From Branchiostoma floridae (taxonomy: Eukaryota; Chordata; Leptocardii; Amphioxiformes; Branchiostomatidae): a DNA stretch of 64,000 bases. The stretch spans positions 4,554,234 through 4,618,233 of the forward strand of contig NC_049985.1 in NCBI RefSeq assembly GCF_000003815.2. The letters are read 5' to 3'. The translations under genes were made by a program, and so were the position numbers. The notes under the pieces were generated by a model, which was given only the letters and a program-made list of their open reading frames with translations, did no database searches and was not told where the DNA came from. Within the stretch, counting starts at the first letter, position 1; each line of letters starts with the position of its first letter. Of the stretch, positions 8,325-49,633 are shown piece after piece.

Positions 8325-11300
8325 ATGTTGCGGTGTGTGGAGACTATTGTGGACCTGCTCACCGGACTGTGCGCCTGCCTCTGCAAGGGAACCGAATACT
8401 GGGAGTTCGACAAGCGGATCTGTGCGCACGCCATGGTGAGATAGTTTATTCTTACTGTACCTGCAATAAAATATGGTATGTCAACGAATGACGAGCAACT
8501 GAAGGGCATTTTACTGTATCTTGTTCACACGTTGTGGGATAAACAAAGTGCAAACGTACCTACCTTTTGCTGAAACTTGCATTGCGCCATACAACAGGTA
8601 CTTAATAGCTGTATATTTACGTATCAACAGGTGACGGGCTCGCAATAGTAACTGCATGCATGACGCGACAATGAGACAGGACACTGCATCTCTATATTTA
8701 CTTGTGAAAACCGAGTGAAGGCCCGTCGCATGCGTCGTACGATTGTCGTACGATTGTATTCTTTGTATGTGTTCTACAAAATGTGTTCTACATTCTGTGT
8801 ATGTGTTATACAAAATGCAGTAGGTAGGGTAGCATGGATGGATACGTGCACTCAACTGAAGAAATGGTTTATGGACACTTGAGGCATGACACTGCCCCAT
8901 GTGTCCTGCAAAATCTAGCTGTCTTAAGCTTGTTACGAAAAGAAGTCGTATTAGATCCTTGTCACGGTTGCATGGTTCTGCTTGGAAATTGTACGACACC
9001 AAGGTTCCAACAACTTACGACGAATGTACTGATAGGTGCAACTAATAAGTGGAAATTGCAATTGATACAAGGCAGGTTCAGATAAACATTCATGACGAAG
9101 GTGTAACGAAACAACGAAGAGTACCGACTTAAATTTTGATGAAAGATGAAAATGAAAGATGAAAATGTGCTAATTGTTTGCTTTTCCTCAGGTCGATCAT
9201 TTGACAGACGAGCAGATAGAGGGTGAGTCATCAAGAAAGTTACCATTTGAATTTAGAACATGAATATGAACTAGTATATTTAAACTAGCAGCATTCTCCG
9301 AATTAAAGATGGATTTTTTTCGCGAATTCGGTTTCCTTTCTAGTCTTCATTCGAGCTGGTTGTTTCACCATATAGATCATGCGGTACGTATGCTAACTCT
9401 CATTGCAGGTGCAGGACTTTACCTATAAAAGGTTGTCCCTTGTTCATCAGGCAGTAGCTATAGATAGTCCTTCGAGTATAAAAGATGTAGTTGTCCTTCC
9501 TGCGTCAACCTGCACCTACCAGCTGTCCTTGTAGCATCTACAGGCGCCACAATCACATGTTCATTGCAGCAGCTGAATGCAACATTAGTCCTTGATGTCT
9601 AAAGCTGTAGCTATAGATTGTCCTTCTAACACAGCATCAAATTGGTGTATATGTATCTGTCGGCTGTCCTTGGTACATCAAGTTATAGCTGTACACATGT
9701 GCATTGTTTTTGGTTGTAAGTTGTCCCCAGGAAACCTGTCTAGCAGATTCTCGGTGGCATAAGATAGTATCAAAGTCGGCAAACGAGTATAGCCGGCCAA
9801 AGGACCGGTAGGCGGCGGACCTCCTTTGGTCGGCTATACTCCTTGGCCAGTTTTGATACTATCTTATGCCATCGGGAATCTGCTTGGAGATTAGCTCCGG
9901 TCTGCATCTGTAGCCTTGCAGGCCATTACTGGTACACTATATAACCAATTCAAAAAAATCATGATTGTATTTTTGTTTTCCAGAGATCAAGGACGCGTTT
10001 GTGTCCTTCGACAAGGACAGTGACGGTCTGATCGCCACGAAGGACATCGGGTCCGTGATGAGATCGCTGGGACAGAATCCCACCGAGCCAGAGCTGAACG
10101 GCATGATCAACCAGGTGGAGATTGGGGCAGGTGAGTACTAAAATGGGATAGGTGCAGATGAGAACTGGTGGGGTAGATTCAGATCATCATCATCATATCG
10201 TTCCGTGCTAGTACTGCAGCCAGGCCACGGCCTCCTCGTTGGCTTCTAGTAGGTCCTGGTTGGAGATGTTGGGGCCTAATACGCAGTCCTTTGTAATGTG
10301 TCCGGCATAGTTTGGGTAGGGTGGCCACAACGGCACTCAGCTGAGTTCACCCGTCCCCATTTCAGTAGGTTGTCTCTGGTCCTACCTACTCCGCACCTGG
10401 CTATGTTCAGGTCCACCCATTCCCTTTAGATGAGATGGGAACAGGTAGATTCAGATGGGAACTGGTGAAGGTAGGTTCAGGTGGGAATTGGTGGAGGTAG
10501 ATGCTGGTGAGATCTGTTAGAGAAAGGTGCGGGTCATTACTAAAGGGGATAGGTGTGGTTGAGATCCAGAGGTAGAGATTCAGAGGTAGAGGTTCAGGTG
10601 CGAATTGGCTCGGGAAGGAACTTATGGAGCTCCGGAGGTAGATGAAAGAGCAGACAAGATCTGGTAGAGGAAGGTGCAGGTCATTACTTAAGGGCAAAGT
10701 TGTGGATGAGAACCAGGGGCAGGTGGAGATAGGGATAGGTTCGGATGGGAATTGGTGGAGGTAGGTTTAGGTGGGAACTGGTGGATGTAAGGCCAGAGCC
10801 CAAAACGGCACAGGCTCCAGGACCCTACTTTGCATCGAACAGTGGCAGGTTGATTCGTCAGGGCGTCTATGTGTTGCTTGGAACGATATCAAACAAGTAC
10901 AATTTTTTTTCTCGGAAACCTCAAACTTTGTGTGTGGTTTAGAAAGGTTCAAGTCTCAAGATTGACAGGCTGATCATGTTTTCGTCGGTTTCAGGGAAGT
11001 TCAAGATCGACTTCCCCGAGTTCCTGGACATGATGGTCGAGCAGATGGAGAACCACAGCAGCGAGCAGGAGATCGCTGAGGCCTTCAGGGTTTTCGACAA
11101 GGACGGCAACGGTTTTATTAGGTGCGAATCCTGAGATCATGATTCTCCCCGCTTACAGCTTCATTTAGGCCTACGTCGACATCATCCAAACCCGGTACCG
11201 GTCCGACAGCTTTTCGGGAACGAAAAGTATGATATAAAAGACACCAAACTGCACAAGACGTTTAGAGAACAGTGTGGGCAAATATTAAAGCTAAGGCTAA

Positions 11301-12378
11301 CGTCACATTTTCAAGCAAGCAGCCCGGCCGCGCCACAGGTACCGGTAGGAAATGTGACGTAGGTCTTAGGTATCTTACTATGACTATGTACATTGTTGGT
11401 ATAGCCTGAACTGTTGTTTTCCAGCGCGGAGGAACTCCGTGACATCATGAAGAACCTGGGCGAGGCGATGTCCGTGGATGACGTGGATGAGATGATCGAG
11501 GCGGTGGACACGGACGGAGACGGACAGATCAACTTCGACGGTGAGATCAAATTCAATATCACAACCCGCCGTACGTGCAATTTGTCCGTACCTTTTTTTG
11601 AGGCCCCATCCGCCACATTTTTCTGAAAACATTCAGGCTGTGAGTACAGGGCAGGTGCGTTGCCCGTACTGGCACGTACGGGGGCTAGTCTGCGGCCCAA
11701 TGGCGCGCACAAAGTTTTGCCTGTACGTAAAGTGTGTCTGCGTGCTCCCAAATCCGTCGGTCTCCCTAGGAGTTCGTACGGAGTCGGTACTTACAACTTA
11801 TGGATCACAAAAGATTGCCCACGTTTTGGCACGTAGACAGCACGCATTTGCACGTACGACGGGTTGTGCCCTTAGCTTAAGTGAAAGTACATATGTGTTG
11901 GTAAATGACATTATGAAGAAAAAAAAAACTTAACGTTGCATAACCAACACTGATACAGTTGGGACTTTTCATGGAATGGACCCATCTACTGCAGCTTTAC
12001 GGTTCGCGAGGCACTTCTGAGCCTATACATTGTAGCTACTTGTATAGACGCTTACCCTTCTTTTAAAAAGTTTCTTTGAAAAATATTTGTTGTACTCTTT
12101 TGAAGTATTGTTGTTACTTTGCTGTTTCAGTAACGAGTGCCATACATTGTCCATTTCAAGACATATCCACTGAATTCTGAAACCTCATTGTAGTTACCTC
12201 TTCCAACCAACCTTGCGACCCTTTTTCTATCTTATCTTATTTTGCCTTTTCTTGCATTTCGAAACGTCTGGTCACATTTAGAATACGTTGTAAACGCAAA
12301 TGAAGTGCTATCAACTCAATAACCCGTTTGCCGATCATGATTTCAGAGTTTGTGGCGATGATGACGGGAAAGTTTTGA
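8325..12378 (+). CDS. Calmodulin-like EF-hand protein, six exons
   Basis: Exons are 8325-8435, 9192-9222, 9984-10130, 10995-11121, 11425-11540 and 12347-12378, with consistent phases and GT-AG ends. The core follows calmodulin: [15 protein letters not shown], then four EF-hand positions, ending [11 protein letters not shown]1 ([12 protein letters not shown]) has Asp, not Glu, at loop position 12. EF2 is broken ([14 protein letters not shown]): its Asp ligands are lost and it has one extra residue. EF3 ([12 protein letters not shown]) and EF4 ([12 protein letters not shown]) are intact. There are two possible starts. The ATG at 8433 has a strong context (GCCATGG) and abuts the intron, as in classical calmodulin genes whose first exon holds only the Met. 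The ATG at 8325 adds 36 residues including a Cys-rich LCACLCKG stretch. The lengths would be 151 or 187 aa. It is a divergent paralogue, not canonical calmodulin; its targets are unknown. Confidence 0.88.
9739..9892. mobile_element. Long foldback element in calmodulin-like intron 2
   Basis: Two arms of roughly 65 bp are near-perfect inverted copies. The left arm contains GGCATAAGATAGTATCAAA and GAGTATAGCCGGCCAAAGGA; the right arm contains their complements. Outer ends AGCAGATTC and GAATCTGCTTGGAGA belong to the CTCCAAGCAGA family. Transcribed RNA would form a long hairpin. No coding capacity. Confidence 0.85.
10131..10795 (+). repeat. Degenerate GGTAGATTCAGATGGGAACTGG array starting at the exon 3 donor
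   Basis: The first bases of intron 3 (GTGAGTACTAAAATGGGATA, then GGTGCAGATGAGAACTGGTGG) recur in diverged form down to about 10795. Examples are GGTCATTACTAAAGGGGATA near 10531 and GATGGGAATTGGTGGAGGTA near 10745. One copy near 10710 (AACCAGGGGCAGGTGGAGAT) resembles the end of exon 3 itself. The array is interrupted by the LINE fragment at 10184-10420. Confidence 0.6.
10184..10420 (-). mobile_element. 3' end of a degenerate LINE (reverse transcriptase C-terminus and tail)
   Basis: Read on the minus strand, the segment gives [21 protein letters not shown] and then [12 protein letters not shown], typical of the Cys-rich C-terminal tail of non-LTR reverse-transcriptase ORFs. After frame breaks it continues [12 protein letters not shown] and ends in an (ATG)n tail at 10184-10197. 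Only about 240 bp remain, so it is a 5'-truncated dead copy inside intron 3 of the calmodulin-like gene. Confidence 0.65.
11560..11868. mobile_element. MITE with CACAACCCGCCGTACGTGCAA terminal inverted repeats
   Basis: The left end CACAACCCGCCGTACGTGCA matches the reverse complement of the right end (CACAACCCGTCGTACGTGCA) at 18-19 of 20 positions. The element is about 309 bp, rich in CGTACG motifs, and lies in intron 5 of the calmodulin-like gene. A related copy in the other orientation lies at about 57460-57665 and shares GATTGCC(C/T)ACGTTTTGGCAC. Confidence 0.8.
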
Positions 12379-13154
12379 TCTCCTACTGAACCGACCGGCC
12401 AATGGCGTCCTCTCGTATCCATGGCAGCTTCTTCACTCTGGGTGGAACCTTTAAATACTGAATCTGAATCTCCGAATGTCTAAACTGTTTTTGATCCCAT
12501 CTTTGATCATACTTTTCTCATTTTGGTATTTCAACTAAACGTGTATTAAAAGATTAACATTCTTAGAACTGACCTGATGCAATTGTTTTTGTATCATTTT
12601 AATAGATTGGTAAGTTGAGGCTTTATAAAGCTTCTTCGTTGTACTGCTCTTCAAACACCATAAAAGAAATTTGAGTCAAAATGTGTTAGAGACGGAAGTT
12701 GTATGTAAAACTCATAGAGGCTGATATACACCGCATCATCTTAGAATATATATATCTCCTATGTTTGATGATATGAGACAACTTATCTGCATGGGCACAA
12801 ACAAGTATATGAGACAACTTCAAGTATTTAAATTATCTTTAATTCTTGAAACAGAAGAAAATGGCTACAGTGGTTGCATGATAACTTATAGTAGCTCAGG
12901 ACACAAATTTTGATACCATACCTTCTACATACAATTATCAAGTGTACCTTGAAATGTACTCATATAGATACACACAAAACACTAATATCACAATATATAT
13001 ATATATCTTTGTATATACATGTTTATATGTCATTTTGGTGAACAATGAAATATCATACCTTTTCAAACATTGTTGTGCTGGTGCAATATAATACCCATCA
13101 AACATGCAGCATATGAAATAAATACCTCCACTCCCCTTATTATTAAACAACCAT

Positions 13155-13270
13155 ACCTGGATGCCAGATACACCCAGGCTATTGGGTACACCCAGGCTAT
13201 TTGGGTACACACGTACCCAGGCTATTGGGCACACCTATGCTCCTGGATACACCCAGGCTAGTAGGTACAT
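13155..13270 (+). repeat. Short CCCAGGCTATTGGGTACA minisatellite
   Basis: About five imperfect units of 17-25 bp, each containing ACCCAGGCTA(T/G)T(T)GGGTACAC or a close variant. Confidence 0.85.
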
Positions 13271-13989
13271 GTACATATGTTCAAACGAATTCCTAACACA
13301 TACTCTTATGCTCATCCTACTACCTGAGCTACACTTTTGGACAAAATCAGGAAGTTCTATACATTTGCACCTATTGCTTCAACAGAACTTGTGCTAACAA
13401 GTCTTATGGTTACAAGACTGAGACTAGGCTTGATTATATAGCAGAGACCTCAATTTGTTCCTTGGAAATGATACAGAAAAATTCAGAAAAGTCATCATCG
13501 CATGTAGTCTCCCATTGCTTAAAGTCAAACACCTTGTACGTGTTACAACAGTTTCAACCTCATACATAGAACACTGCTAATATCTATTTCCCCTTCTACC
13601 ATGAAATTAAGTTATTGCAAACTTAAAATCAATTTAAGATAACTAGTTTCAGTTGCCCCTTCTGCAGTATTCTTCAAATAGCCTCGACAAAAGTCTAAAC
13701 TAAGTCAACAGCCTTTTGACAGGATGTTCTCCACAAAAAGGACATGCAATTTTGTTACACCCTTGTAGTACACCATGGATAGTGAGTGAGTGAGTAACAC
13801 AAGTGAGTGTATAACACATCTTTCAGCTTGAATTGGGAGCAGATACATGTTTCAGTTTATTTACCTCGGCACTTCATTTGGCAAAACAACTTTGTATAAT
13901 TACCAAACATGGCAAGTTTTCAGAGCTCTTTCATGACGATCCTTATTGGCCACTTTTGATTCGAAAATAAAATAAAACTAAAAAATAAC

Positions 13990-14620
13990 AGAAAACCTGG
14001 CACTTCACAGCACACAATGATTCCCTAGAACAAAATAATACCCTTCATAACAAACATTTAGCAACACATGATTATGCTTTTTTATCATACACCTGAACTG
14101 GAACAAAACTTTCACCCTTCAATACAATCATATAGGAGGACATGATTGTAAGCTGTAGAGGGACACAATAATCCCTTCATAACAAACATTTAGCAACACT
14201 TGATGCATTTTTATCATAAACCTGAACGGAAAAAAATTATGACCCTTNNNNNNNNNNNNNNNNNNNNNNNNNNNNNNNNNNNNNNNNNNNNNNNNNNNNN
14301 NNNNNNNNNNNNNNNNNNNNNNNNNNNNNNNNNNNNNNNNNNNNNNNACAATGTATAGATCATAACAAACCCTCAGCAGAGCATGATAATACCGTCATAA
14401 GAAAACTGTAGTGCAACATGATACATGTAAGATCCATCAGAAGAAACCCTCAGCAGAGAATTGTTTTTTACCCTTCATAACAAAGCTGTAGCAGAATATC
14501 ATGATTTACATGTATAAACTTGTAGTAGGGGGCATTATCAGGATATAAGCCTACAGTGGGGCACAATAATACCCTTCATTTGAGAAACCCATAGAAGCAC
14601 TCAATGATTCCCCCAAGCAG
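13990..14620 (+). repeat. Degenerate array of CATAACAAAC..TAGCA(A/G)..CATGAT units
   Basis: Diverged units of about 55-70 bp recur on both sides of the gap. Each carries variants of AATACCCTTCATAACAAAC followed by AGCAACACATGAT. It is an old tandem array with no coding sign. Confidence 0.7.
14248..14347. other. Assembly gap (100 N)
   Basis: A run of 100 N within the degenerate array; the size is probably arbitrary. Confidence 0.99.
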
Positions 14621-15799
14621 GGCACAATTAGACCCTACAAGTGATTGTTCAGGTATGGTAGTGGTATACGTAGTAAACATGAGGACACTTTACGTCTGAC
14701 ATTCCAACAGAAGAACACACCTGTTCTTGTCTCTACAAAACAACCCCTTGCATAGAGTACAAAATGTCTATTCAACCCTCTCAAAAACATTTCCCCTTCC
14801 TTATTATGCATCAATATTAATACCAATATATTGAACTAAGCCATAGGAGAGAAAAAATTGTTGTGTTCCCAATTACCAAGCAAAAACCTGCCCACCCTAG
14901 TCTCTTTTGCGAGTCGACCGCTGGCAAGGGTCACACATCTTCCAAGTGACATTTGAGTGGTGAAAACTTTTTATTTACAATAGTTTTTCAACATTTTCTC
15001 CTCATTTCTGTTGCTACAGAAATATGTGCTTTTACGTTAACTTTATCAATGTTAATCAAAACATGATGTTGAAAATACCATGTCCTGATGCACACATATT
15101 TCAGTTCTTCAATTCTACAGAATTTGAAAAAAGAGAATCCCTACCTACCAACCCTATCATTTTCAGGACAGTGATTGGAAATGTAACCTTAGTTTTCCGT
15201 GGCCTATAAACCTACAAATGCATGGAATGGCTGTTCCACAGAGAACTGTAGTAATGTGAACATGTAGAATTGAATCCATAGGTACATGGAATGGTCACAG
15301 TCAGACAAGTTTGTAGGAATGTAGATCATGTCTGCAAGGAATATCCATGCTAGTGTCAGAGGAATGTACAGTCAGGCCTAGGAAAAAATGTTGTGTTTCC
15401 TGTTTCCCGACCTACCCTAGAAAAACCTGCCGACCCTAGACTTTTTTTGGGTGGGCAGTGGAGTCAAATACTTTTAAGTTCAATTTTCATTCAGCTTGCT
15501 TCCTATTCAAGTAAAAAACTGATTGTCCTATCTAATTAAGGATAAACGTATATCTACAGATCTGCACAAAATTGAAGTTTGACATGGAAAATATTAAGTG
15601 CCCTCCTGCATTTCATTTTACTTTGTTAAAATGTATTGTGTCACATAAGAGTTTGGACCAATGTCTAAACAAATGATTCAGTTTGAAAAAAAATAACCCC
15701 TACCTACCTACTCTACTTTTTTCAGGACTGAAACAGGAAACAATAATTTTTTCCTAGGCCTCAGCCTTTATGGTCCCACTATGGCATGTAGACTTGTTG

Positions 15800-16145
15800 T
15801 AAACAACTCCATAAATGGAAGCCTTGTTTCTAAAAACTCCATATATGGTAGCCTTATTTCTCAAAGCTCAATATATATATAGAAACCTTCTTTCTCAAAA
15901 CTCCATATATGGAAGCCTTGTTTCTCAAAAAAGTTGTCTGTTGATATATAGATGGTAATAAATAGGTTCTCAGAGGCAAAAATTCCATATATAGCAGTCT
16001 TATTTCAGAGCAGAAAGTCCATATATAGAAAATACAAACTTCTTTCTCAGAGGCAAAAGCTCCATATATGGAAGCAAGTTTTTTCTTTTGAGGCAACAAC
16101 TCCATACATGGAAACACTGTTTTTCAAAACCTCCATATATGGAAG
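15800..16145 (+). repeat. Minisatellite whose unit contains a CArG-box palindrome
   Basis: About nine to ten units of roughly 30 bp, of the form CTCCATATATGGAAGCCTTG then TTTCTCAAAA. Five units have a strict CC(A/T)6GG box, at 15809-15818, 15839-15848, 15903-15912, 16062-16071 and 16133-16142; the others are one or two bases away. The array lies about 160 bp beyond the STARD10 stop codon. Confidence 0.9.
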
Positions 16146-16301
16146 ATCGAACCTGACAAGACCCAAGTTGTCAGAAATACTTACGTTTGATTGCTTTTTG
16201 TTTATCATTCTTAAAACCTTAAGGAAATTTTCACTGCCCTAATAGCAGGACAACTGTTCTGGAAAAGGAACTTAGCCTAACTTAGAGTTAACTACTAGTG
16301 G

Positions 16302-19300
16302 CTATGCTGGTTCTGTGTCTTCATCTTTCACGAAGTTCTCATCCTTGAAATCCTCTTCAAGAGCCTCCATCTCTTCCATGATGTCACTGGAGGAGTCTGG
16401 GAGCGCCGCCAGGACCACGGGAGAAAGGTCATCGTAGTTGACCCTTGGGACGGTGATCTGTTCCGGGTAGAGCCACGGTTTCCACGCGGGTTTGTGCTGC
16501 GACTTCCATGCCGGGTACTTCATGGCAGCCTTGTGGATCTTCTGCATCATCTAGATAGGAGGGTACAGTACTGTAAGTCTGGAAATATGTGCAGAGGTGT
16601 ATTTGTGTTGGTCTGCAGTATTGTTTTGACTGCAGACTTAAAACACACACACAAACACACGCATATACACGCACTGACACACACAAACACAAATAGACAC
16701 AAACACACACACATATAAATACAAATGGACACACACACATAAAAAACACACACAGTTATATACGCAAACATAAATACAAATGGACACAAACAAACACACA
16801 CACACACACACACACATAAACATCGTACTTACTCTTGGAGCGTAGAATTGTGTTGCTTTGTTCACCACCCACTTTGGCAGGGACCCTGCAGAAACATAAA
16901 CAAACCTTAGAGACATTGCCTAACAACATTTGGGAGGTTGAAGGGTTCAAAACCAGGCCAGTGTACATAATGCTTTGTAGTGAGTATGGCACTTGAACAC
17001 ACACTAGTGGACAAGTCCCCTTCTGTAGTGGCATGAGTGGTCCATGGACTATAGAATTAAGAACTCGAGATGGGCACCGCCCTTATACATAAAAAAAGTG
17101 GGGCAAGGATTTTAATCAACTACTTCAACTAAAAGCTATGAAGCATCCGGTACATAACTATGTATACAGCTCTATTGTCTTCGATGAATTGAATGATATC
17201 ATGCAAATGGATCAGCTTTACTCAAAAGCCTCATAGCGAAGACTTAAATGTGAAATTACAACACAAAAACTTAACTGGTCTTTTAAATATCATGTTAGAC
17301 TCACCTCTGGGGTCCATCTGTGTGAGATATGTGAAATGGCAGCTGTCGGAGGTCAGAGGTCGTATCAAGTATCCCGACAACAGGGAGATGCCTCGTACAA
17401 ACCCCTTCTTAGGTGGCACTTTCTGTGGGACGGGCAAACATTGCAACATTTGTTTGGATCTGAGATTTGGGTAAGGAACATTCAGAATTCTATGTAGTTT
17501 TGCAAATTTTCTTTTGTAAAATGTAAATCTGCATTAGTCTTAGATGATATTCAAAATACAAGTGTACTGATGCAGTTAAACATCGTTAAACTGTATTATT
17601 TTGTCTCATGAGTTCAGGAAAAATAAAACACTGGCCTTAATTTGTACAAGAATGCTATCTGAATGCTTTTATTTATTGTTATTGGGGAAACACAACATTT
17701 ATGTTCCTAGGAACAATGTTGCTTAAGTAAAGAAACATCGCAACTGACCTGGTGATTGACAGAATGGTTGATGATCATGTACTCCGTTCCAGTTTCCAGC
17801 CAGGATCTTAGAGTGACAAAGTCACGGTTCTTCAACGGTGGGGAACACTTCCCTGCAGAATCAAAAGCAACACAACACAGATTGGTATTGCACACACAAT
17901 AATCTGAAGCTTTGTGTTGTAGGGATGGTACTTACATGAGTAGTAGCCTACAATGTTAGGATGGTACTTACATGAGTAGTTCTACGTTCTTGAAATTGTT
18001 CTAAGAAAAGTACATGTAGTAGCTGACATTGTTAGGATTGTACTTTTAGTATCAAGTAGCCTACATGGTTAGGATGGTACTCACATGAGTACGTAGCTTG
18101 TATTTACATGAGTAGTAGCCTCCATTGTTAGGGTGATGCTTACATGAGTACTAGTAGCCTCCATTATATTAGGATGGTGCTTACATGAGTTTAGGATTTA
18201 CCTACATGAGTAGTAGCCTACATTGATAGGGCAGTATTAACATGAGTAGTAGCCTACATGACTTGTAACCTTAATTATTGTTAGCATGTACTTACATGAG
18301 TAGTAGCTTATTTCAAAGTTAGCATGTACTTACATGAGTAGTAGCCTACATCATTGTTTGGGTTGAGTTGGCAGATTTCGTAAGCGTCTATCATGTTTGG
18401 GTCCCACATTTTTCTGTACTCAGGATCGTGAAGGACATCGTACAAAGTCGCCGCACAAACTTTCTTGAACGTCACTGAAACCTGGTAGGAAGAAAACACA
18501 CAGCAGAGATGTAGAAAATATCAGTGAACAAAATTTAATGAGTTCTGTTCTGGGAACTGTTTGTTCCCATTTTATGGCAGCAAGGAGGTAAAAAAACTTA
18601 ACCTCCTTGATCATGGCAGCTGACTAGCTATCCACTGACAATACCACACTACTTTCAAGAAGGTGGCGTCCTCCCATGATGCTGCAATACCTGAAAATAC
18701 TGCTAGGGGTCCCAAAAACTTACAGGACTCTAAACATTGTAACTGTATCTCTGTTTGTTATATACTTTGTCTGACCCTTGCCTCTTCCCTCATGACCTCA
18801 ATGAAAAGCGGCCTGCAGGCCGATTTGAGCTTTCATGAATAAATAAAGGTTCAAACAAAAAAACAAACATATTCTTTAATAGCTATCTATAGTATCTATC
18901 TTCAATGCAGTTAGTGTTACATTTGATAGCTGAAGAGTTAATACAGCAATAAACAAAAAACAATAGCTACCTATTTACCAAATTTTGTACAATTTTATCA
19001 AAGGGGTTTTGTAGGTACGAATACACAAACACAGCCAAAAACAATATACCCATATCGGAGGCGAATCACCTTCCTTGATACGGAGGTAATAGCAGGCGTA
19101 CACGTAAGAGCACTGTTCAATGGGACATTACTGTACAGATGTTGCCACTATTATCTCCCAAAGGCCCAAAGGCTTTTGTTCCTATGACATCTGGTGTCAG
19201 AGATGACCCAGTTTTGGTCTAACCACAATTCACACAGGAGTTTCCTCGGGGGCCTGGGCAATTATAGGGTGCACACAGCAGAACAATTTAATTTTTATCA

Positions 19301-24230: not shown

Positions 24231-24411
24231 CTCATGTAGCCCCTCCCCCAGCTATCAATGATACCGAAACTAAAGGGGATCCGTCCTTGAGGTGTGGCCA
24301 AAAATTTCAACAGTTTGAAAGTTTCTCTGCACTGGGCGTTCTCGTCACAAACTTAGAATGGTCTATATAACATAAACTCTCTCTTTTCAGCGCCTCTGTG
24401 CTGCTATAAGA

Positions 24412-24567
24412 NNNNNNNNNNNNNNNNNNNNNNNNNNNNNNNNNNNNNNNNNNNNNNNNNNNNNNNNNNNNNNNNNNNNNNNNNNNNNNNNNNNNNNNNN
24501 NNNNNNNNNNNNNNNNNNNNNNNNNNNNNNNNNNNNNNNNNNNNNNNNNNNNNNNNNNNNNNNNNNN
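24412..24567. other. Assembly gap (156 N)
   Basis: A run of 156 N inside the PAXX-DELE1 intergenic region. The odd length suggests an estimated size. Confidence 0.99.
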
Positions 24568-24729
24568 AGTTTATTTACCTAAATCATAGATTACACTCGA
24601 CATAGACCAACATAGGCACATCTACACTTGGCCCTTGACAGCACAAGTTACACACGGCAAGAAGGCCGACATGCGTGGGATTACATTACACATGCAAATT
24701 ATCTATCTGCTGCTGACCTTCCGGTCGCA

Positions 24730-24747
24730 TGACGTCATGTTGCATCA
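24730..24747. promoter_or_regulatory. Palindromic CRE plus C/EBP-ATF composite site
   Basis: TGACGTCA (24730-24737) is a perfect CRE palindrome. Two bases on, GTTGCATCA (24739-24747) reads TGATGCAAC on the minus strand, fitting the C/EBP-ATF response element TGATGNAAN bound by ATF4 heterodimers. The pair lies about 120 bp upstream of the DELE1 ATG. Function is inferred. Confidence 0.55.
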
Positions 24748-24864
24748 TCGGGAAATCCCCCACATGGATGGCGATGGCGTAGCACGCGCTGTGACGCCGT
24801 TGTGTTCGTCAACTTTCAGTAAGGTTATTACTTAAGACAGGCGGTTTTCTGATGTTTCTGCGTC

Positions 24865-27800: not shown

Positions 27801-30800
27801 TACAACACACTTTGTGTAAATAAAAGTTGATGATTCTTAGCCTGAGTACCATCTGATTTCTATAGGTATATACCGGGGCTCCTTGCACTCGGTAGAAATC
27901 GGATGGTACCCAGGCTAGATGATTCTGGCTCCTAAGTGTGAATGTTGATGTTACATGTCTCCTTTTAATAGGATTGCCAGGACGAATATTAATGATTATC
28001 AATGTGGATATTGATGATTGTTAGTGTAACTGTCAATGATCATGTGTGTAATTGTAAATGCTGATGCTCCATATGTATACCCCCACAGGATCGCCAGTGC
28101 TGCAGGCAGTGCAAAGGCCCAGTATAATCTGGGTGTTTGCTACGAACAGGGCCGTGGGGTGGACAGAGACATCAAAAAGGTGAGACAGAATCTGCTTAAG
28201 GTTGAACATAAACCAGACCCAGCCTTTACACATATATTATGCATGCAAACTTTTCCATGGGGTAGTAAGTATGAATCAATGTGTTGTGTCTGTGTGAGTG
28301 GATGAAGTAGTTACCAAATGCCACCTTCATTCAAATGTTCTGTTTGTGCTTATATTGTGATGGAACGACTGTTGTCAATTGTTTGTCAAATAATGTATTG
28401 AATATTGTATAATTTTACCAAACTCAAGAATTTTGTTTTAACTTTTTTAACACTCTGATGATGTCTCTTAACATTGTGATCATGTTTTAGACACGATGAA
28501 GTCTACCAAATGCTAATAAAGTTCTTTGATGAAGATACATGTGTACGTCAATGAAGGTTTGACATCCAGGTAATAAGATATGCCAAAAGCAGTTACTCAA
28601 GCAACTGGATATGATTTGGGAAACGGTCAGATGTTTCAGATACTAGTAGTATCCACTACCTTTTGTCAGTGACTCTTTGATGATGATGTTGTTGATGTTT
28701 CAGGCGGCTGAGCTGTACCAACAGTCAGCCGAGCAGGGCCACGGCAGAGCCCAGTACAACCTGGCCACCCTGTACCTGCACGGGGGAGGGGGGCTGCAGC
28801 AGGACACGGACAAGGCACTTGGTCTGCTGCAACAGGCAGCTGCACAGGGGGTCATGCAGGTGAGCGGCGGGTCTTTCATGGGTGTGTTGTGGTAGAGTAG
28901 TAAAGAAAAAGTCAAAGTCCTTTCCATACCATTGTAGAATAGAGCCAGTCTTGTACCTGGCCATGGGTTTAATGTATTGCAGGCCTCTACAGTCTACTTG
29001 TTGCCTGGCCTCTGTATTGACTATTCTGACCTGGGGTTAGTGTGCCCAGTTTTACCTGGGGGTGTCATGCTGTTATCAGGTACCAGTCTAAACTGATTGC
29101 AATGCCCCCAAAATGCAGTCCTCTATGTTATCTCATAGACCCAACCTTCTACATGTTTAACCCGGGTGTGTTCTGTTGCATGCAGGCCCAGTCCTTCCTG
29201 GGTGTTTACTGGACCATGGAGCCTCACAGAGACATGTTCACAGCCAGCCAACACTTCACTAGTGCAGCACAGCAGAAGGTATGTTCTGACAAAACCTCTT
29301 TCTTAGGAATTTCATCTTTAAGGAAATACTCACTCAACATTGGTACATGATGTACTGGGTATTTTCAATAATTCAGCATTAAAAGATAAGCAAAGCCATA
29401 CCTATTAATTATAGTGTAAAATAGGTAACTTTTGTCTTAAAAGTGCTGTTTGATTTCTTTCTACTGTAAATTCCATCATTTTTGCAGGGACATAATTTTG
29501 CATTAGGATGGTAGCAAATGCAGAAAGAAGGTTATAAGATTCTATAGTGCAATAGTAAAATTGTGAAACATGTGTTTAGTGTCATAATTTCAAAGCAAGA
29601 AACAGCTGTGAACATTTCAAGGTCAATTGTACCAAAACCTTTCTTCCCTCCAGCACATGAGTTCTCAGTACCATCTGGGGGTTTGTTACGAGCGAGGCTG
29701 GGGTGTAGAGAGGGATGTAACCAGAGCTGTGGAGCTGTACATGTCTGCTGCCGCTGCCGGCCACACACAGGCAGCTCACAACCTCGCTGTGCTGCAGAGA
29801 GGTACGATGGAGGGGGTGTGTGGTTAAGGGGGGGGTCAGATGTTGTGCAGGGGGGTGTTACCAGGGGGGTTGGGGTGTGGAGAGGGATGTAACCCGAGCT
29901 GTACATGTCTGCTGCCGCTGCAGGGCACACACAGGCAGCTCACAACCTGGCTGTGCTGCAGGGAGGTACGATGGAGGGGGTGTGTTACAGGGGGTGTGGT
30001 ACAGGGGGGTGGTACAGGGGGGGTGTTACGAGCGAGGTTGGGGAGGAGAGAGGGACCTGAGCAGAGCTGTGGAGCTGTACATGTCTGCTGCTGCTGCAGG
30101 CCACACACAGGCAGCTCACAACCTGGCTGTGCTGCAGGGAGGTACGATGGAGGGGGTGTGTGGTTAAGGGGGGGTCAGATGTTGTACAGGGGGGTGTCAC
30201 GAGGGGGGTTGGGGTGTAGAGAGGGACCTGGGCAGAGCTGTGGAGCTGTACAGCTGCCACTGCAGGGCACACACAGGCAGCTCAACCTGGCCGTGCTACA
30301 GGGAGGTATGTGGAGGGGGGGATGTGATACAGGGGGGTACAATAGGGGGTGTTACGAGCGGGGCTGAGGTGTGGAGAGGGACCTGACCTGAGGAGCTGTA
30401 CATGCACAGGCAGGCAGATGTGTGCTGTTCGGTGGAGGGAGGGCTTGTATGGGGGGACTGTAGGGAGCAGCTGCTGTAATGAAGGGGGGATGTGTGGTTA
30501 GTGCTGTAGAAGGACAAAAAAACATACTAGTATATGTTTGGTTAGAGATTGTGGTCTGGCATAATTGGTGATTCTACTGGTACTAATCATTATGCAAGGC
30601 TCTGACGACAGAGCTCAAGATCACTACTGTAACAGTTGGAGATACTACTGGTAGAAGAATCTTGCATTCTTGCACTGAATCTTTCCCTTGTATCTGCCTT
30701 TAAATCTAGGGGCCGCTGGAGACGCGGGATTTCAGGACAACTCGCACAAAATGGTTCCTTCACTCGAAGAGAAACCAGAATCTTCCTCACAAGTCGTGCA

Positions 30801-31317
30801 ACGTTCAACTCAAGCAATAGTCAAGAAGGTCCCAAAGATTCACACAGCCGAACAATCACCCACAACAACAGAGAGACATTCATGCATGAAGGACCTGAAA
30901 TCTGAGAAGTCATTCTTTCGCAAGGAGTCTGTGGAAGTTCTACCCTGCAACCTGTCCGCCGTGTCCTTTGGTGACCGTGGAGTTGGAGAGGACAGTAATG
31001 ATGACTTTAGTAAAGCCAGCCATTATGACCTTGGGGAGGCCAGCCTTTCTGACCTTGAAGAAGACACCAGTGATAACTTTAGTAAAGCCAGGCATAGTGA
31101 CCTTAGAGAGGCAAGCCAGTATGACCTTGGGGAACCCAGCCGGTATGACCTTGGGGAGGATAGCCTTTCCGACCTTGAAGAGGACAGCAGTGACGACTTT
31201 GGGACAGCAAGCCATAGTTTGTTCCACATGGACAGGTACAGGGCCCGGCATGTGGGACAAACATCAGTTCTGAACAAAACTGTCGCAGCAAAACCTGTCC
31301 AACTGGCTGTGAGCTGA
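24865..31317 (+). CDS. DELE1: DELE1, mitochondrial stress relay protein with Sel1-like repeats
   Basis: Ten exons: 24865-24895, 25838-26099, 26319-26436, 26744-26992, 27555-27712, 28089-28179, 28704-28859, 29186-29278, 29654-29801 and 30710-31317, giving 637 aa in unbroken phase. The N-terminus MWRILQGLPR resembles human DELE1 (MWRLPGLLGR) and looks like a mitochondrial presequence. A conserved segment (FWSNFDTKDINSLFDVIGW, then AILLGFQL) follows. Exons 6-9 encode Sel1-like repeats: KAQYNLGVCYEQGRGVDRD, RAQYNLATLYLHGGGG, then SSQYHLGVCYERGWGVERD. On mitochondrial stress DELE1 reaches the cytosol and activates the HRI kinase, raising ATF4 (established for the human protein). The last exon encodes an unusual acidic tail with repeats (YDLGEASLSDLEED, 31010-31210). 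Intron 9 is filled by tandem copies of exon 9. An AATAAA lies at 31360-31365. A shorter in-frame ORF using other frames of exon 1 was rejected. Confidence 0.93.
27838..27918. repeat. TAGCCTGAGTACCATCTG hairpin element
   Basis: The left arm TAGCCTGAGTACCATCTGAT is complementary to the right arm ATCGGATGGTACCCAGGCTA with few mismatches, and both continue through TTTCTA. It is an 81-bp foldback in DELE1 intron 5, related in its TAGCCTG ends to the element at 31488-31584. Confidence 0.8.
28555..28636. repeat. Dispersed repeat, CAGTTACTCAAGCAACTGGATATGATTT family
   Basis: The segment GACATCCAGGTAATAAGATA and the following CAGTTACTCAAGCAACTGG, ATATGATTTGGGAAACGGTC match the left arm of the palindrome at 59783-59945 almost base for base. 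This copy, in DELE1 intron 6, has only one arm. Confidence 0.8.
29845..30425 (+). repeat. Tandem copies of DELE1 exon 9 with its donor site
   Basis: At least four diverged copies of the exon 9 segment follow the true exon in intron 9. They start from GGTGTTACGAGCG(A)GG, pass through CACACACAGGCAGCTCACAA, and end GTGCTGCAGGGAGGTACGAT, near 29850, 30018, 30190 and 30347, spaced about 150-175 bp. The copies include the GAGGTACG donor but lack the acceptor and first bases of the exon. The copy at about 30020-30145 keeps an open Sel1 frame (CYERGWGGERDLSRAVELYM). Confidence 0.92.
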
Positions 31318-43300: not shown

Positions 43301-46300
43301 TGTCCTTTTTTTGTTTTTGACTAATTTTGTGTTGTTCTGTGCTGCAGCCTTACAGCGTTCTCCATCTTGGTTGTTCTGCTGGTGTCATGGTTACTGCCTC
43401 CCACAACCCGAAGGAGGACAACGGATACAAGGTTTACTGGAACAACGGGTCACAGGTATGTAAGGAACAGCTACACCAGTCTTGTTTCTTGTTTCTAATT
43501 TTTTTCTATTTGAACCTCTACTTTAGCTTTGTTCCTAATCTTTACCTTTACCCCTGGTTCAATGACTAAGTGGTAGAGTGTTCACCTTGTAGTTGGTAGG
43601 TTCAGTGAGTTCAATACCCAATCAAGTCATTCCAAAGACTCTACAAATGGTACATTCTGCTTCCCTTCTTAGTACTGAGCATTTGAGGAAGAGGACAGTT
43701 ACTGTAATTGAACACACAATGCACTAGCCCCCTGCTGTACTGATCGCAAAACTGCCCCAGGGCTACAGAAACTTCCAACATCTTCTGCACCATCTGGTGT
43801 TGGAAAAAGATTTTTACACTTTTCCAAATCTTCACCTTCATCTGGTTCACCATTCCTTCAGATGTTGACACTAGCATGTTTTCTCTCCAGATCACCTCTC
43901 CCCATGACAAGGGCATCGCCAGCTCCATCGATGCCAACCTGGAGCCGTGGCCCACATCTTGGGACGTCTCCATCTGTGAGCAGAGCCCGCTGTGTCAGGA
44001 TCCCATGGACAGGATCACCAAGGCTTACTATCAGGACATACAGAACTACTGTTGCCATAGGTAACTAAGAGAACTACTGTTGTCTTAGGTAACTTACAAA
44101 CAGAACTACTGTTGTCATAGGATACCAACAAACTGAACTACTGTTGCCATAGGTAACCTACAGAACTACTGTTGCCATAGGTAACCAAGAGAACTACTGT
44201 TGCCATTGGCAACCATGAAACAGAACTGCTGTTGCCATTGGTAACCATGAAACAGAACCACTGTTGCCATTGGTAACCATGAAACAGAACCACTGTTGCC
44301 AGGGGTAACCATGAAACAAAACTACTGCTACGATTGGTAACGTTAAAACAGAACTACTGTTGCCATAGATAACCAACAGACATAACTACCGTTGCTATAG
44401 ATAACAACAAACAGAACTAATATTGCCATAGGTAACCACGAAGCAAAAGTTCTGTTGCCATAGGAAGCCAATAGACAGAATAGATGTGCCATAGGTAGCT
44501 ATCAAACAGAACTACTGTTGCCAAAGGTTAAACAAAAAGAAAGAAAGAAAGAACTACTGTAGCAAAAAATATAGAACTACTGTTATTTCTGTTGGCAGAT
44601 AGATCAAAATGTAAATTTTCTAGAATATTAGATAAAAGTAGATAGAGGTATCTAAGTTACTTGATTTATTTTCCCAGGGAAAACAACCAGAAGACAAGTG
44701 TGAAGTTCACGTACACAGCCATGCACGGGGTCGGGTACCAGTTTGAAGTTCAGGCCTTCCAGGCCTTCAGCCTGCCCAGCGTTATACCTGTGGAGGAACA
44801 GGTCAGTTCTTAGGTCACTTGTCAGGCGACGGGTCGCTGGAAACAATCTTTTTGTAGGTCAAAGCGCAAAACAAAGACATTTCAATGCAAGAAATCTGAG
44901 ATCTCGTGCCTTTGTTGAATGTTAAGAGTTACAATTCTTTGATGACTCTCATTATGATTTTGTGCATACATTTTCCTGGCATCCTGGGGAATTTGGACCT
45001 GGGCTAAACCAGTGTTCCTAGCTATGGTGATATTCTGGATGTTTCTGTTTCAGATCATACCAGACCCTGAGTTCCCAACAGTTAAGTTTCCCAACCCAGA
45101 GGAGGGCAAAAGTGCCCTGGTAAGTTTGAGATGAAAACCACATACTACCATAGTATAAGGAAAATCACAGGCTGAATAAAAGTTGTACAAAAGATGTCGA
45201 TGGCTTAAGGAATGAACCACTCTACTTAAAACTTATTAGAAAATGTTTTGGATGTTATTTTGTTTGTACAAAACAATGTTTTGTTTGCCAGTTGTATGTA
45301 GGGCACGTTTTGGATGTTTTTGTTTGAAGATCCTGATGAATTTAGTATGTTTGTTGTTTGCAAGACTAAGGTTGTTTGTTTGCTTGTTTGTCATCTTCAG
45401 GACCTGTCTATGCAGACGGCAGAGAAACACGGCAGTTCTGTGATCCTGGCCAACGACCCTGATGCAGACAGACTGGCAGTGGCTGAAAAACAAAAGTAAG
45501 GAAACACTTTGACAGATTTTACTTTGAAAAGAAATAAAAATCTCATACCTCAGAGTCTGTGAAATATTGATTCTGTCCAGTGCAATTTCCCCCTGGCTTT
45601 AATAAGACAACAGACATGCATTAATAGGGAATGGAAGACCGGAAATGAGATAACCTATTTTGGGACCTAGCATGTGGAAACCAGGTACTGTATATACGTA
45701 TATGGATTCAACTAACTATGGACACACAAGCAGACAAGCAGACAGACAGACACCCTGAAAACAAAACTTCCAGATAACAGGGGGAACAAAACTTACCGTT
45801 TGCTAATTATTTTTCCCTTCCCCAGTGGTTCCTGGAAGGTTTTTACCGGAAATGAGCTCGGTGCTCTGCTGGGCTGGTGGGCATGGAAGTGCTGGAGACA
45901 GAAGAACCCAGACAAAGGTAACATCTTTGTATGAAAGTTTATCTGTGATGGTAATCAACCTTGTATAACACATCGTACCAACAACCCTTGACCAGTCCTT
46001 GGGTCCTTCCAAAGTTGATTTTTTCTGAAGCTCAATGATGTCATCTCTTCACTAATGCCTGGCTCATAAGGCACATAAGGGTCATCCCTTGTACATTTTA
46101 TACAGTTTACATTTTGAACAGATATATGTAGGTCACAAATAATGTGATAAAAAATAAAAAAGATACCAGTACATGTCTATGTATCTTTCATGGCCATGTA
46201 CCAGGTATGAATTTTGTATATATGGCTGTATATATGGTGACAGTTGATGTTCCTTCCTTTTGCAGATGCCAAAGATGTCTGGATGATAGCCAGTACTGTG

Positions 46301-49300
46301 TCGTCTAAGATTCTCAGGGCCATCGCAATCAAGGAATCCTTCAACTTTGAGGTAAGATGCTCGAAATGTATGCAGTAGTTTTATTTTTGTGTGAACCTTT
46401 AAACTGACATTGCAAATATGTGTTTCTATTCTATTGCATTACTATTGAACTATGGAATTGTTGTAACATTGCAACTGAAAACACTGCTGTAAAAAGGCTT
46501 CTTTCCCCTCATACCACAGACTTTAGTTCCAGCAAAAATATATGAATTTTCTGTATAATTTAGAATCAGATTCTTTAGAAATAACATGTCTTTGCCTATT
46601 TTTGGTATAGTTTTATTACTTGTACCTTGTAGCATGCTAAGGTGTCACACAGATGTTTTGCTAAGGTATCTCACCAAAGTTGTTGCCTTTCAGGAAACAC
46701 TTACTGGCTTTAAATGGATGGGAAACAAAGCGGATGAGTTGATGAAGAAGGGACAAACTGTGCTCCTTGCATTTGAAGAGGCCATAGGTCAGTAAGGTTG
46801 CTATGGTAACAATGGGGAGGAGTCAGTTTTGGGGCTTATTATTCAATGCCTTCTGTTAGTTTTATGTATCCATACGTTACCTCAGACTTTTAGGGATGTT
46901 GAGAGATAGTTTAGGTAGACATGAAGAAAAAGAGCTGTCTCCAGGCTCCTCTCTCTCTTGCTACATCACAAAAACACAAAACAGGTTGGAAGTTGGTGTT
47001 TGGGATGTGTCCGTTCATTATTGCAATTCTCATGTATTATGTGTTCTCACAGGGTTTATGTACGGCACCAATGTGCTGGATAAGGATGGCATCAGTGCGT
47101 CTGTGGTAATGGCTGAGATGACATGTTGGCTGGCCAGTCAGAATATCAGCCTCACACAGCAACTAGGCAGGATCTTTGAAACGTAAGTATTGTAAATAAG
47201 CAGTGTTGACTGTTGGCTAGAGGATAATTTTTCTTTATTCTGTACCTATGTCCATCAGCCTTGCGTTCTTTCTGTAGATCCTTTTGTAACTTTATGGCAT
47301 GGAACATTCTGGAACTTTAGCACTACACCCTCCCCGCGACAAAACATTAGCTCAAATAATTCAAACAACAGGAGCTTATGAACTCATATGCATCAACTTC
47401 ATCTTAACTTGTCTTACCTTATATTTTGTATTGCCAACAAGATCTCTTCAGTGTCACTCAGGGACGAAAGATGACGTTTCCAAAATTATATCTAATTGCT
47501 TAAGTAATTGCCATTTGATGTATCTTATTACATGGATGTCATCAACGTTAATCATCCTTGTCTTCCTCTTGTAGCTATGGTTACCACATGTAGCTTGTAC
47601 TGTCAATCATCATTGTCCTCTCGTATCTATGGTTACCACATGTCAATCATCCTTGTCCTCCTCTTGTAGCTATGGTTGCCACATGTCAATCATCTGTCTT
47701 CCTCTTGTAGCTATGGTTACCACCTGTCAATCATCCTTGTCCTCCTCTTGTAGCTATGGTTACCACATGTCAATCATCCTTGTCCTCCTCTTGTAGCTAT
47801 GGTTACCACATGTCACCTGTCATCAGTCTTTCTCTTGTAGCTATGGTTACCACTTGTCAATCATCCTTGTCCTCCTCTTGTAGCTATGGTTGCCACATGT
47901 CAATCATCTGTCTTCCTCTTGTAGCTATGGTTACCACCTGTCAATCATCCTTGTCCTCCTCTTGTAGCTATGGTTACCACACGTCAGAGAACTCCTACTA
48001 CATCTGCCACGACCCGCCCACCATCACCAAGATGTTTGAGAGGATGAGGAACTGGGATGGCAAGACTGGCCAGGTAAGATCCTGCATGTGGTGTTCTGTA
48101 AATCCTGGAATGTTTACGATGGTTTAGTTTCCGCAGTCTTTTCCATGACCTCTTTCAAACTTGTGCTTTGTACTAAAAATGTGCCACAGAATTGTCTGAG
48201 ACGAAATCTGAAAAAACCTCATTCCCTTCTTACTGCGAAATAAGTCCCTGTGAAAATAGATGGATTTATTGTATATGCTAGTCTGATACAGTGTATGTTC
48301 TTGTTCTTCACTAATAATAAGCGTGTATATTCTAATCCAATACCAGGTTGGTATATGAATAATGCTTGTATGTTGTTCTCTGAATGAATTGAACTTATAC
48401 AATGGTTTGTATGTTCCCAGTACCCTAGTTCATGTGGTCCATATAAAATCAAGCACATACGGGACTTGACAGCAGGGTACGACAACAGCAAGCCAGACAA
48501 CAAGCCGGTAAGTATACGTCATATGGACAAAAAAATTTCTTAAATTTTAGTTTATTACCAGCTCTACAATTATACCCAGCCCAACTGCTGTGTGTGGGAA
48601 CAGATAGACAACAGAATGATTTCTTAGTAACTGGCATGTGCTATGTAAAACTAATAGAATAGCATTTTGTGCAGCAAGTTTCTAAGTTGATACTGATTTA
48701 ATCACAGGTACTCCCCACCAGCAAGGCGAGTCAGATGATCACCTTCTCCTTTGAGAATGGCTGTGTGGCGACCTTGAGAACCAGCGGGACGGAGCCCAAG
48801 ATCAAATACTACACAGAGATGTGCCTGCCGCCCGGCACTGGAGGGTGAGTTTTCTATCGCTCAAGGATTCAGCACCAAGGACAGGGCTAGGCCAAACTTG
48901 TGCTGTTGATGTATTGTTTTTCTGCTTTTTCTGTGTTGTTTCTGTACTGTTCCTTTTCTGTTTCTGTGCTATTTCCATGGTGTCTATGTGTTTTTTGCTG
49001 TGCTGTTTTAAAGCAGCTGTTGTTTTTCCACCCGTGCTGTTGACTTTTGTTGTTTTAGCACTTCTGCTATGTTGCTGCTGGGAATGAAATGAATGTGTTG
49101 TTGCTGTGCTATTTTCTGCTATTTCTATGCAGTTGTTTTTAATGTTGCTAATGTTTTTGTGCTCTTACTGTGTTTATAAATGTAGTTTCCATGCTGTTAT
49201 TGTATTGTTCCTGTGCTGTTTCAGTATTCTTGCTATTATGCTTCCAGTTATTTCTGTTTTTTCTGTGTATGTTGCTGTTGCTGTGTTGTTTCTGTGCTGT

Positions 49301-49633
49301 TTTTTTTCAATGCTGCTGCTGTGCTATCCCTGTGCTGTTTCTATTCTGTTAATGTATTGTTGCTGTGCTGTTTCAGTGTACCTGCTGTGATGTTACCATG
49401 CTATTTCTGTGTGTTTTTCTTTGTATGCTGATGCTTCCATGTTGTTTCTGTGCTATATTTTAAACGCTGTTGCTGTGCTATCCCCATGCTGTTTCTGTCT
49501 TGTTAACATATTGTTCCTGTGCTGTTTCAGTTCGCCAGAGTCGGTAGCTGCAGAGCTCCATGCGATGGTGGAGACCATGGTGAAGGAACTCCTCCAGCCT
49601 GAAGTGAACGGGCTGATCGCCAGGAGTGGTTAA
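40374..49633 (+). CDS. PGM2: Phosphoglucomutase/phosphopentomutase PGM2
   Basis: Eighteen exons: 40374-40481, 41654-41753, 41909-41976, 42367-42455, 42947-43031, 43348-43455, 43891-44060, 44678-44801, 45054-45119, 45401-45495, 45826-45917, 46266-46351, 46694-46787, 47053-47182, 47968-48073, 48421-48507, 48708-48844 and 49531-49633. All junctions keep phase, giving 615 aa (human 612). The active-site phosphoserine loop is [16 protein letters not shown] (exon 6). The metal-binding loop is [12 protein letters not shown] (exon 10), the sugar loop AFEEAIGFMYGT spans exons 13/14, and the phosphate loop is [12 protein letters not shown] (exon 17). The enzyme interconverts ribose- or deoxyribose-1- and 5-phosphates and also glucose phosphates in the cytosol (family knowledge). 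PGM2L1 is the close vertebrate paralogue; a single amphioxus gene could predate that split. Three introns carry splice-site minisatellites. Confidence 0.96.
41088..41151. repeat. (AATC)n microsatellite
   Basis: Imperfect AATC tetranucleotide run in PGM2 intron 1, followed by AAACCTTTATCAGG, possibly the tail of an old element. Confidence 0.9.
44035..44610 (+). repeat. Minisatellite of the exon 7 end and donor of PGM2
   Basis: The true border is CAGAACTACTGTTGCCATAG then GTAAC at 44060/44061. About fifteen further copies of GAACTACTGTTGCCATAGGT, followed by AAC, fill the start of intron 7, spaced 26-37 bp. Several keep an exact CATAGGTAAC or TTAGGTAAC donor (near 44090, 44148, 44180 and 44430). 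Later copies decay to GATAACC or GGAAGCC. Confidence 0.95.
45640..45790. repeat. Dispersed repeat with (CAGA)n core
   Basis: ATGTGGAAACCAGGTACTGT, then ACAAGCAGACAGACAGACAC and AAAACTTCCAGATAACAGGG, parallels ATGTAGAAACCAGC, then ACAGACAGACAGACACATC and AAAACCTCCAGACATGGAGG at 34664-34855 in RFC3. An inverted relative lies near 4900-4960. Confidence 0.55.
47528..47985 (+). repeat. Minisatellite of the exon 15 acceptor of PGM2
   Basis: The unit is about 43 bp: TCAATCATCCTTGTCCTCCT, CTTGTAG, then CTATGGTTACCACATG. The last copy is the true acceptor (CTCTTGTAG ending 47967, then CTATGGTTACCACACG). Eight to nine near-identical copies precede it from about 47565, each with its own pyrimidine tract, AG and first 14 exon bases. 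Confidence 0.95.
48880..49530 (+). repeat. T-rich CTGTGCTGTTTC array before PGM2 exon 18
   Basis: Degenerate units such as TGTTGCTGTGCTGTTTCTGT fill intron 17. The true acceptor is CCTGTGCTGTTTCAG at 49516-49530. The same string with CAG occurs upstream near 49210-49224 (CCTGTGCTGTTTCAGTATTC) and 49360-49376 (GCTGTGCTGTTTCAGTGTAC), so the array also multiplies an acceptor. Confidence 0.75.

What the first reader, a model, noticed from the sequence alone, without database searches (positions are those of the whole stretch)
10131..49530. A recurrent class of minisatellites built from exon edges plus their splice sites
At least four introns in three unrelated genes (STARD10, DELE1, PGM2 twice) carry tandem arrays whose unit is the neighbouring exon end together with its own donor or acceptor. 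Two further arrays, before PGM2 exon 18 and after exon 3 of the calmodulin-like gene, look like weaker examples. This happens on both strands and at both donors and acceptors. In each clear array the unit nearest the exon is the real splice site, so the arrays appear to have grown outward from it into the intron. That many cases in 40 kb suggests a systematic mechanism, for example slippage or repair copying seeded at splice sites, or tolerance because a duplicated splice site still splices. I recall amphioxus Adh minisatellites that span exon borders having been described, so the class may be partly known; the density and the in-frame stop property seen here may not be.
Basis: partly seen in the sequence, partly recalled or inferred. 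Interest (0 to 1): 0.85.

Follow-up and report, generated by a model that had tools for sequence, protein, structure and literature searches.

The report
Splice-site minisatellites ("mirages") in lancelet genes
Several introns in this animal genome contain tandem copies of the neighbouring exon edge with its splice site, a repeat type already named "mirages" in lancelets, and the copies look more like tolerated passengers than products of a process aimed at splice sites.

Summary
Four introns in three genes carry tandem arrays whose unit is the exon edge plus its own donor or acceptor: STARD10 exon 2, DELE1, PGM2 exon 7 and PGM2 exon 15. The CALML and PGM2 exon 18 arrays are real repeats, but the aligned unit holds no clear exonic sequence. 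The class is in print: such arrays are called "mirages" in amphioxus Adh3, globin and other genes (passages). The window lies in an unnamed 513-Mb, 431-contig genome, whose size I recall as fitting Branchiostoma floridae.

In 264 kb from seven other places I found three more cases, all acceptors, two in one WW-domain gene: about 11 per Mb (95% interval 2-33).

The inferred systematic mechanism is not supported. Junctions are not more often inside arrays than random positions. Counted per array, the sample gives 3 against 1.8 expected (P=0.27). In-frame stops are ordinary. Best reading: minisatellites arise without regard to splice sites, and those crossing one persist because the exon-proximal site is still used. 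PGM2 exon 15, with nine AG-bearing acceptor copies, would test splice-site choice.

The parts
17915..18355 (-). STARD10-like intron 2: array of about 38-bp units, each the exon 2 end plus its donor (..GGCTACTACTCAT|GTAAGTACC); authentic donor at 18333; ends set by eye
   Evidence: GT in 11 of 12 anchors; four copies score as the authentic donor or above; START domain.
29677..30337 (+). DELE1-like: 4 copies of a ~164-bp unit, about 120 bp of Sel1-repeat exon end plus donor and 44-56 bp of intron; authentic donor after 29801
   Evidence: copies 65-91% identical, GT kept in 4 of 4; Sel1 repeats.
44036..44528 (+). PGM2 exon 7 donor array, ~32-bp unit (..GAACTACTGTTGCCATAG|GTAACCA); authentic donor after 44060; degenerate copies run to about 44594
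   Evidence: 18 anchors, GT in 11; exonic identity to the authentic copy shows no significant fall with distance (rho -0.30, P 0.28).
47545..47986 (+). PGM2 exon 15 acceptor array, ~43-bp unit (..CCTCCTCTTGTAG|CTATGGTTACCACA), 10 copies; authentic acceptor is the last one (exon starts at 47968)
   Evidence: AG in 9 of 10; copies 47670/47711/47754 equal 47884/47925/47968; a genome search with this array matched only the array itself (2 matches).
49185..49531 (+). PGM2 intron before exon 18: ~154-bp repeats whose unit carries the pyrimidine tract and AG but not the exon; weak example
   Evidence: local alignment score 82 against shuffle maximum 34, ending one base into the exon.
10443..10830 (+). 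Calmodulin-like gene, intron after exon 3: degenerate repeats resembling intron sequence downstream of the donor; weak example; right end set by eye
   Evidence: score 41 against shuffle maximum 23; the aligned stretch lies entirely in the intron.

Best explanation
These are mirages: ordinary minisatellites whose repeat unit happens to contain an exon edge and its splice site. A local duplication crosses a junction (inferred). The exon-proximal site goes on being used, so every extra copy falls in the intron and is silent (inferred from reading frames here and from published results on other genes). The array then grows, shrinks and homogenises by slippage and by unequal exchange of multi-unit blocks, which can include the authentic copy (block structure shown for PGM2 exon 15; process inferred). 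No process aimed at splice sites is needed; tolerance is enough.
For: Unit structure and register at four window junctions. Three further cases in an independent sample. No excess of junctions in arrays per site and no significant excess per array in the independent sample. Copy-private substitutions are spread over all codon positions (33/20/34; 27/16/30 after correcting anchors and dropping one misaligned copy, third-position excess P=0.10), while exon-versus-all-copies differences are 1/1/5. A block duplication includes the authentic copy. Published mirages are said not to disturb regular splicing and to vary in length (passages).
Against: The window has more arrays on junctions than placement of seed units predicts (4 against 1.22, P=0.024; a hand-listed set of 7 intronic arrays: 4 against 1.18, P=0.012), and window plus sample gives 7 against 3.04, P=0.026; but the window was picked because of the arrays, and strict extents give 5 against 3.04, P=0.18. 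Use of the exon-proximal site is not shown by any RNA here; in one sample array the gene finder chose the copy one unit further out. In 7 of 7 arrays the exonic part is more alike than the intronic part when gaps count (5 of 7 by substitutions only), and second codon positions change least in the copies; plain drift predicts neither.
Confidence: 0.65

Rival explanations
1. Splice sites actively seed repeat formation, for example through R-loops, transcription-linked breaks or repair copying at exon edges.
For: 4 arrays on junctions in the window against 1.22 expected, P=0.024; 7 against 3.04 with the sample, P=0.026.
Against: The window is post hoc. The independent sample alone gives 3 against 1.82, P=0.27. 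By strict extents the figures are 3, 2 and 5, P=0.11, 0.56 and 0.18. By site, junctions are less often in arrays than decoy sites (3 of 244 against 50 of 1210, P=0.024) and not more than random positions (229 of 9134, P=0.29).
Confidence: 0.13
2. The copies do something: they act as alternative or decoy splice sites that tune isoforms or send transcripts to decay.
For: Copies keep splice signals of authentic strength: four STARD10 copies score as the real donor or above; two PGM2 exon 15 copies beat the real acceptor. GT is kept in 11 of 12 STARD10 anchors. Two PGM2 exon 15 copies would insert 28 or 57 residues in frame without a stop. The exonic half is better kept when gaps count.
Against: In PGM2 exon 7 only 11 of 18 anchors keep GT. 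Copy substitutions show no clear coding pattern. In-frame stops are as common after ordinary donors. No RNA data.
Confidence: 0.13
3. The copy numbers, or the arrays themselves, are assembly artefacts.
For: Assembly gaps occur in the window, one inside a tandem array (N runs 2487-2586, 14248-14347, 24412-24567).
Against: Copies within most arrays differ from one another by many substitutions. The same design is found at three further loci and in a published case rebuilt from trace reads.
Confidence: 0.05

Closest known systems
Amphioxus 'mirage' minisatellites (Adh3, troponin C, globins BflGb6 and BflGb9; PGBD5 as an imperfect case)
   Same: Tandem copies of an exon-intron boundary, at 5' and 3' boundaries, AG/GT kept in many but not all copies, homogenisation within the cluster (passages seen; the original Adh paper is not held).
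   Different: Other genes (STARD10, DELE1, PGM2 twice, a WW-domain gene twice, a SMYD2-like gene); up to 18 repeat anchors in one array; a density estimate and a test against random placement.
Human internal tandem repeats at exon-intron boundaries in segmental duplications (PMC2812944)
   Same: Minisatellites of about 30-bp units, some at exon-intron boundaries, that can change gene structure (passages seen).
   Different: There the concern is recent paralogs and repeats kept in or spliced out of exons; here conserved genes with apparently silent intronic copies.
Complete or partial exons with splice sites in introns of amphioxus VCBP3 (PMC2632668)
   Same: Intronic copies of adjacent exons in amphioxus, some with canonical splice sites (passages seen).
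   Different: An immune-type gene; the passages do not call them minisatellites.

Membership tests
Amphioxus mirage minisatellites | Tandem repeat whose unit spans an exon-intron boundary | tested here: met
   Four window arrays; CALML and PGM2 exon 18 do not clearly meet it.
Amphioxus mirage minisatellites | Found at both 5' and 3' splice boundaries | tested here: met
   Three donor arrays and one acceptor array in the window; three acceptor arrays in the sample.
Amphioxus mirage minisatellites | AG/GT kept in many but not all copies | tested here: met
   PGM2 exon 15 9 of 10, DELE1 4 of 4, WW arrays 5 of 5 and 4 of 4, SMYD2-like 5 of 5; PGM2 exon 7 11 of 18, STARD10 11 of 12.
Amphioxus mirage minisatellites | Concerted evolution within the array | tested here: met
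   Identical units 214 bp apart in PGM2 exon 15; not examined formally in the other arrays.
Amphioxus mirage minisatellites | Host is a lancelet | tested here: inconclusive
   Genome of 513,431,437 bases in 431 contigs, unnamed; the fit to B. floridae is recalled.
Amphioxus mirage minisatellites | Regular splicing is not disturbed | not testable with these tools
   Only indirect: open spliced frames.
Amphioxus mirage minisatellites | Length instability, including somatic | not testable with these tools
   One assembly only; no relatives held.

The most novel reading that the evidence does not exclude
Mirages are not curiosities but a pervasive feature of the lancelet genome, numbering in the thousands (extrapolated 5,800; 1,200-17,000). 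They would be a standing source of duplicated splice sites from which intron growth, intron gain and in-frame exon extension can start, and the constrained authentic exon would act as the template that keeps the exonic half of the copies alike.
Probability: 0.3. Interest if true: 0.62.

Novelty: new member of a known kind. Interest (0 to 1): 0.4.

Why it matters
Arrays of alike splice sites in which apparently only the exon-proximal one is used are natural experiments on splice-site choice. In PGM2 exon 15 nine of ten acceptor copies keep AG, and two copies score above the authentic one, so local sequence alone does not explain the choice. If mirages are as common as the sample suggests, lancelets allow a direct test of exon definition and of the published idea that such duplications feed intron gain. 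The negative result matters too: their frequency needs no special mechanism.

Tried and rejected
Splice-site-seeded mechanism: tested in several ways; not supported outside the flagged window. Stepwise outward growth: PGM2 exon 15 contradicts it (rho 0.05); STARD10 shows a trend with distance (rho -0.77, P 0.07, on 7 of its 13 anchors); PGM2 exon 7 showed rho -0.48, P 0.07 with uncorrected anchors and -0.30, P 0.28 for the exonic part after correction. In-frame stop as a selected property: expected by chance and broken by two PGM2 exon 15 copies. Exonic half conserved by conversion from the exon: 7 of 7 with gaps but 5 of 7 by substitutions only (PGM2 exon 7 redone with the same direction), so left open. 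DELE1 copies under coding selection: third positions held 26 of 43 differences; when differences shared by all copies were separated 10 of 18 private ones remained at third positions, so weak coding-like bias in DELE1 is not excluded.

Errors found and mended: the anchor of one C2 array was one base off (0 of 5 AG; 5 of 5). In some searches four PGM2 exon 7 anchors were one base off; recounted. In one search one SMYD2-like copy with a deletion was misaligned and inflated the counts; left out.

Positive control on the known globin mirages: not reached. 9 globin exons were placed; upstream flanks of 4 of 9 were fetched, and 0 of 4 showed a repeat. The known BflGb6 and BflGb9 loci were not identified.

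Rows not counted: 9 window rows and 3 sample rows were positive; I set aside 6 window rows (1 false junction in the array at 2.6-3.1 kb, 5 inside DELE1 copies). The gene finder missed the STARD10 junction at its cut-off, so sample counts may be low. In one search the strict repeat-finder extents cover 3 window and 2 sample junctions; STARD10 (its covering row scored 72, under the cut of 80) and the C8 case (row stops 16 bases short) were added from self-matches. For the STARD10 comparisons I used 7 of 13 anchors, chosen for clean alignment.

Full report
What is there. I annotated 114 canonical junctions in the window by reading the sequence (coordinates checked by script). Spliced frames are open across every annotated junction of PGM2 (17 of 17), DELE1 (8 of 8), STARD10 (5 of 5), the calmodulin-like gene (5 of 5), PAXX (6 of 6) and one unnamed gene (3 of 3); RFC3 gave 6 of 8 and NUDCD2 3 of 4, so some of those boundaries may be off. 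Of 8 proteins given to Pfam, 7 matched, among them PGM_PMM I-III, Sel1 repeats, a START domain, EF hands, PAXX, WW and CS; the finer names STARD10, DELE1, PGM2, RFC3 and NUDCD2 are recalled.

Four junctions of 114 have a 40-base stretch across the splice site that recurs in register nearby: STARD10 exon 2 donor, DELE1 donor, PGM2 exon 7 donor, PGM2 exon 15 acceptor. PGM2 exon 15 has ten copies, 41-52 bp apart, 71-100% identical to the authentic one, nine with AG. PGM2 exon 7 has 18 repeat anchors, 11 with GT; STARD10 12, 11 with GT. DELE1 has four, all with GT. The CALML and PGM2 exon 18 arrays are real repeats (0 of 60 shuffles reach their scores), but the aligned unit is intronic or stops one base past the AG.

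Splice signals. Scored with matrices from 53 donors and 57 acceptors of the window (mirage junctions left out), four STARD10 copies equal or exceed the authentic donor, and two PGM2 exon 15 copies beat the authentic acceptor, which itself is weak (4th percentile). So local strength does not single out the authentic site.

Structure of the arrays. In PGM2 exon 15 the units at 47670, 47711 and 47754 equal those at 47884, 47925 and 47968, the last being the authentic junction: a three-unit block recurs, authentic copy included. STARD10 shows identity falling with distance only as a trend; PGM2 exon 7 does not after correction. Among copies, the exonic part is more alike than the intronic part in 7 of 7 arrays if gaps count and in 5 of 7 by substitutions only. 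Private substitutions in the exonic part of copies, in the five arrays with a known frame, fall 33/20/34 over codon positions 1/2/3, or 27/16/30 after correction (third-position excess P=0.10); differences between the exon and all its copies fall 1/1/5. The copies look largely unconstrained, though second positions change least and DELE1 leans to third positions.

Stops. Reading on from the authentic donor meets an in-frame stop before the next donor in 3 of 3 donor arrays (1, 23 and 23 nt). For 44 ordinary donors the median distance to such a stop is 33 nt, and the joint expectation for these unit lengths is 0.25. Of nine upstream PGM2 exon 15 copies, seven meet a stop first; the copies 84 and 171 nt upstream would add 28 and 57 residues in frame. 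The property is ordinary and not universal.

Elsewhere in the genome. The window is part of a 513-Mb genome held without a name. I took seven 40-kb stretches at fixed positions (8.00-8.04 Mb of contigs 1-6 and 8), 263,981 bases without N. A simple gene finder trained on the window (calibrated on the same window: 135 predicted junctions at the cut-off, 90 correct, of 114) gave 244 junctions. Three are mirages, all acceptors: two in a WW-domain gene (67-bp and 113-bp units) and one in a gene resembling SMYD2 (copies 130-154 bp apart; PDB match E=0.0013 with a joined query; the single exon alone matched nothing). For the 67-bp array the gene finder chose the copy one unit upstream of the exon-proximal one, so which acceptor is used there is open. 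Three in 264 kb is 11.4 per Mb (95% interval 2.3-33.2), or about 5,800 (1,200-17,000) if the genome were uniform. The upstream flanks of 4 of 9 globin exons held no repeat.

Is there a link to splice sites beyond chance? By site, no. In the window 4 of 114 junctions are in arrays against 6.1 expected from all positions at the 30-of-40 threshold. In the sample it is 3 of 244 junctions against 50 of 1210 decoy splice-like sites and 229 of 9134 random positions, the mirage arrays themselves left out of both controls; sites within one array are not independent. By array, placing one unit of each minisatellite at random, the window has 4 of 16 on junctions against 1.22 expected (P=0.024), the sample 3 of 30 against 1.82 (P=0.27), both 7 against 3.04 (P=0.026); with strict repeat-finder extents 3, 2 and 5 (P=0.11, 0.56, 0.18). 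A hand-listed set of intronic window arrays gives 4 of 7 against 1.18 (P=0.012). The window figures are post hoc. A moderate preference cannot be excluded; a systematic mechanism is not shown.

What is known. [quoted passage not shown] Passages of PMC3902484 add PGBD5 (imperfect) and troponin C. The original Adh paper is not held. My searches listed no genome-wide survey of mirages that I could recognise from titles and abstracts; only openly licensed papers are held. Human repeats at exon-intron boundaries are described in PMC2812944 (passages), and intronic exon copies in amphioxus VCBP3 in PMC2632668 (passages).

Verdict. The arrays are new members of a known kind. The likeliest history is minisatellite birth without regard to splice sites, survival because the exon-proximal site keeps being used, and turnover by slippage and unequal exchange. 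Use of that site and instability of the arrays are inferred here, not shown.

Noticed in passing
62527-62985: Minisatellite of palindromic units (CAGCACTGG..CCAGTGCTG), partly exact 31-bp copies, beyond the start of NUDCD2, with no gene that I could assign; a repeated hairpin. A genome search with it did not complete.
   Followed up: no
15793-16125: Array downstream of STARD10 whose units repeat CCATATATGG, which I recall as a CArG-box (SRF) consensus.
   Followed up: no
44037-44528 and 46797-46810: The PGM2 exon 7 unit (GTTGCCATAGGTAAC) and GTTGCTATGGTAAC just after the exon 13 donor resemble RFX X-boxes as I recall them; the unit is a near-palindrome over the donor.
   Followed up: no
2372-3052: Tandem array of 21/42-bp units interrupted by a 100-base run of N (2487-2586), so its length is uncertain.
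   Followed up: no
30983-31188: Imperfect 24-bp tandem repeat in the last DELE1 coding exon, a unit length that keeps frame, in the same gene that carries a mirage.
   Followed up: no
30018-30141: The third DELE1 copy keeps an open Sel1-repeat reading frame and is 91% identical to the authentic exon end over the aligned unit.
   Followed up: partly
35500-36880: Within an RFC3 intron, a stretch that by eye looks like a reverse transcriptase remnant on the minus strand; not searched.
   Followed up: no
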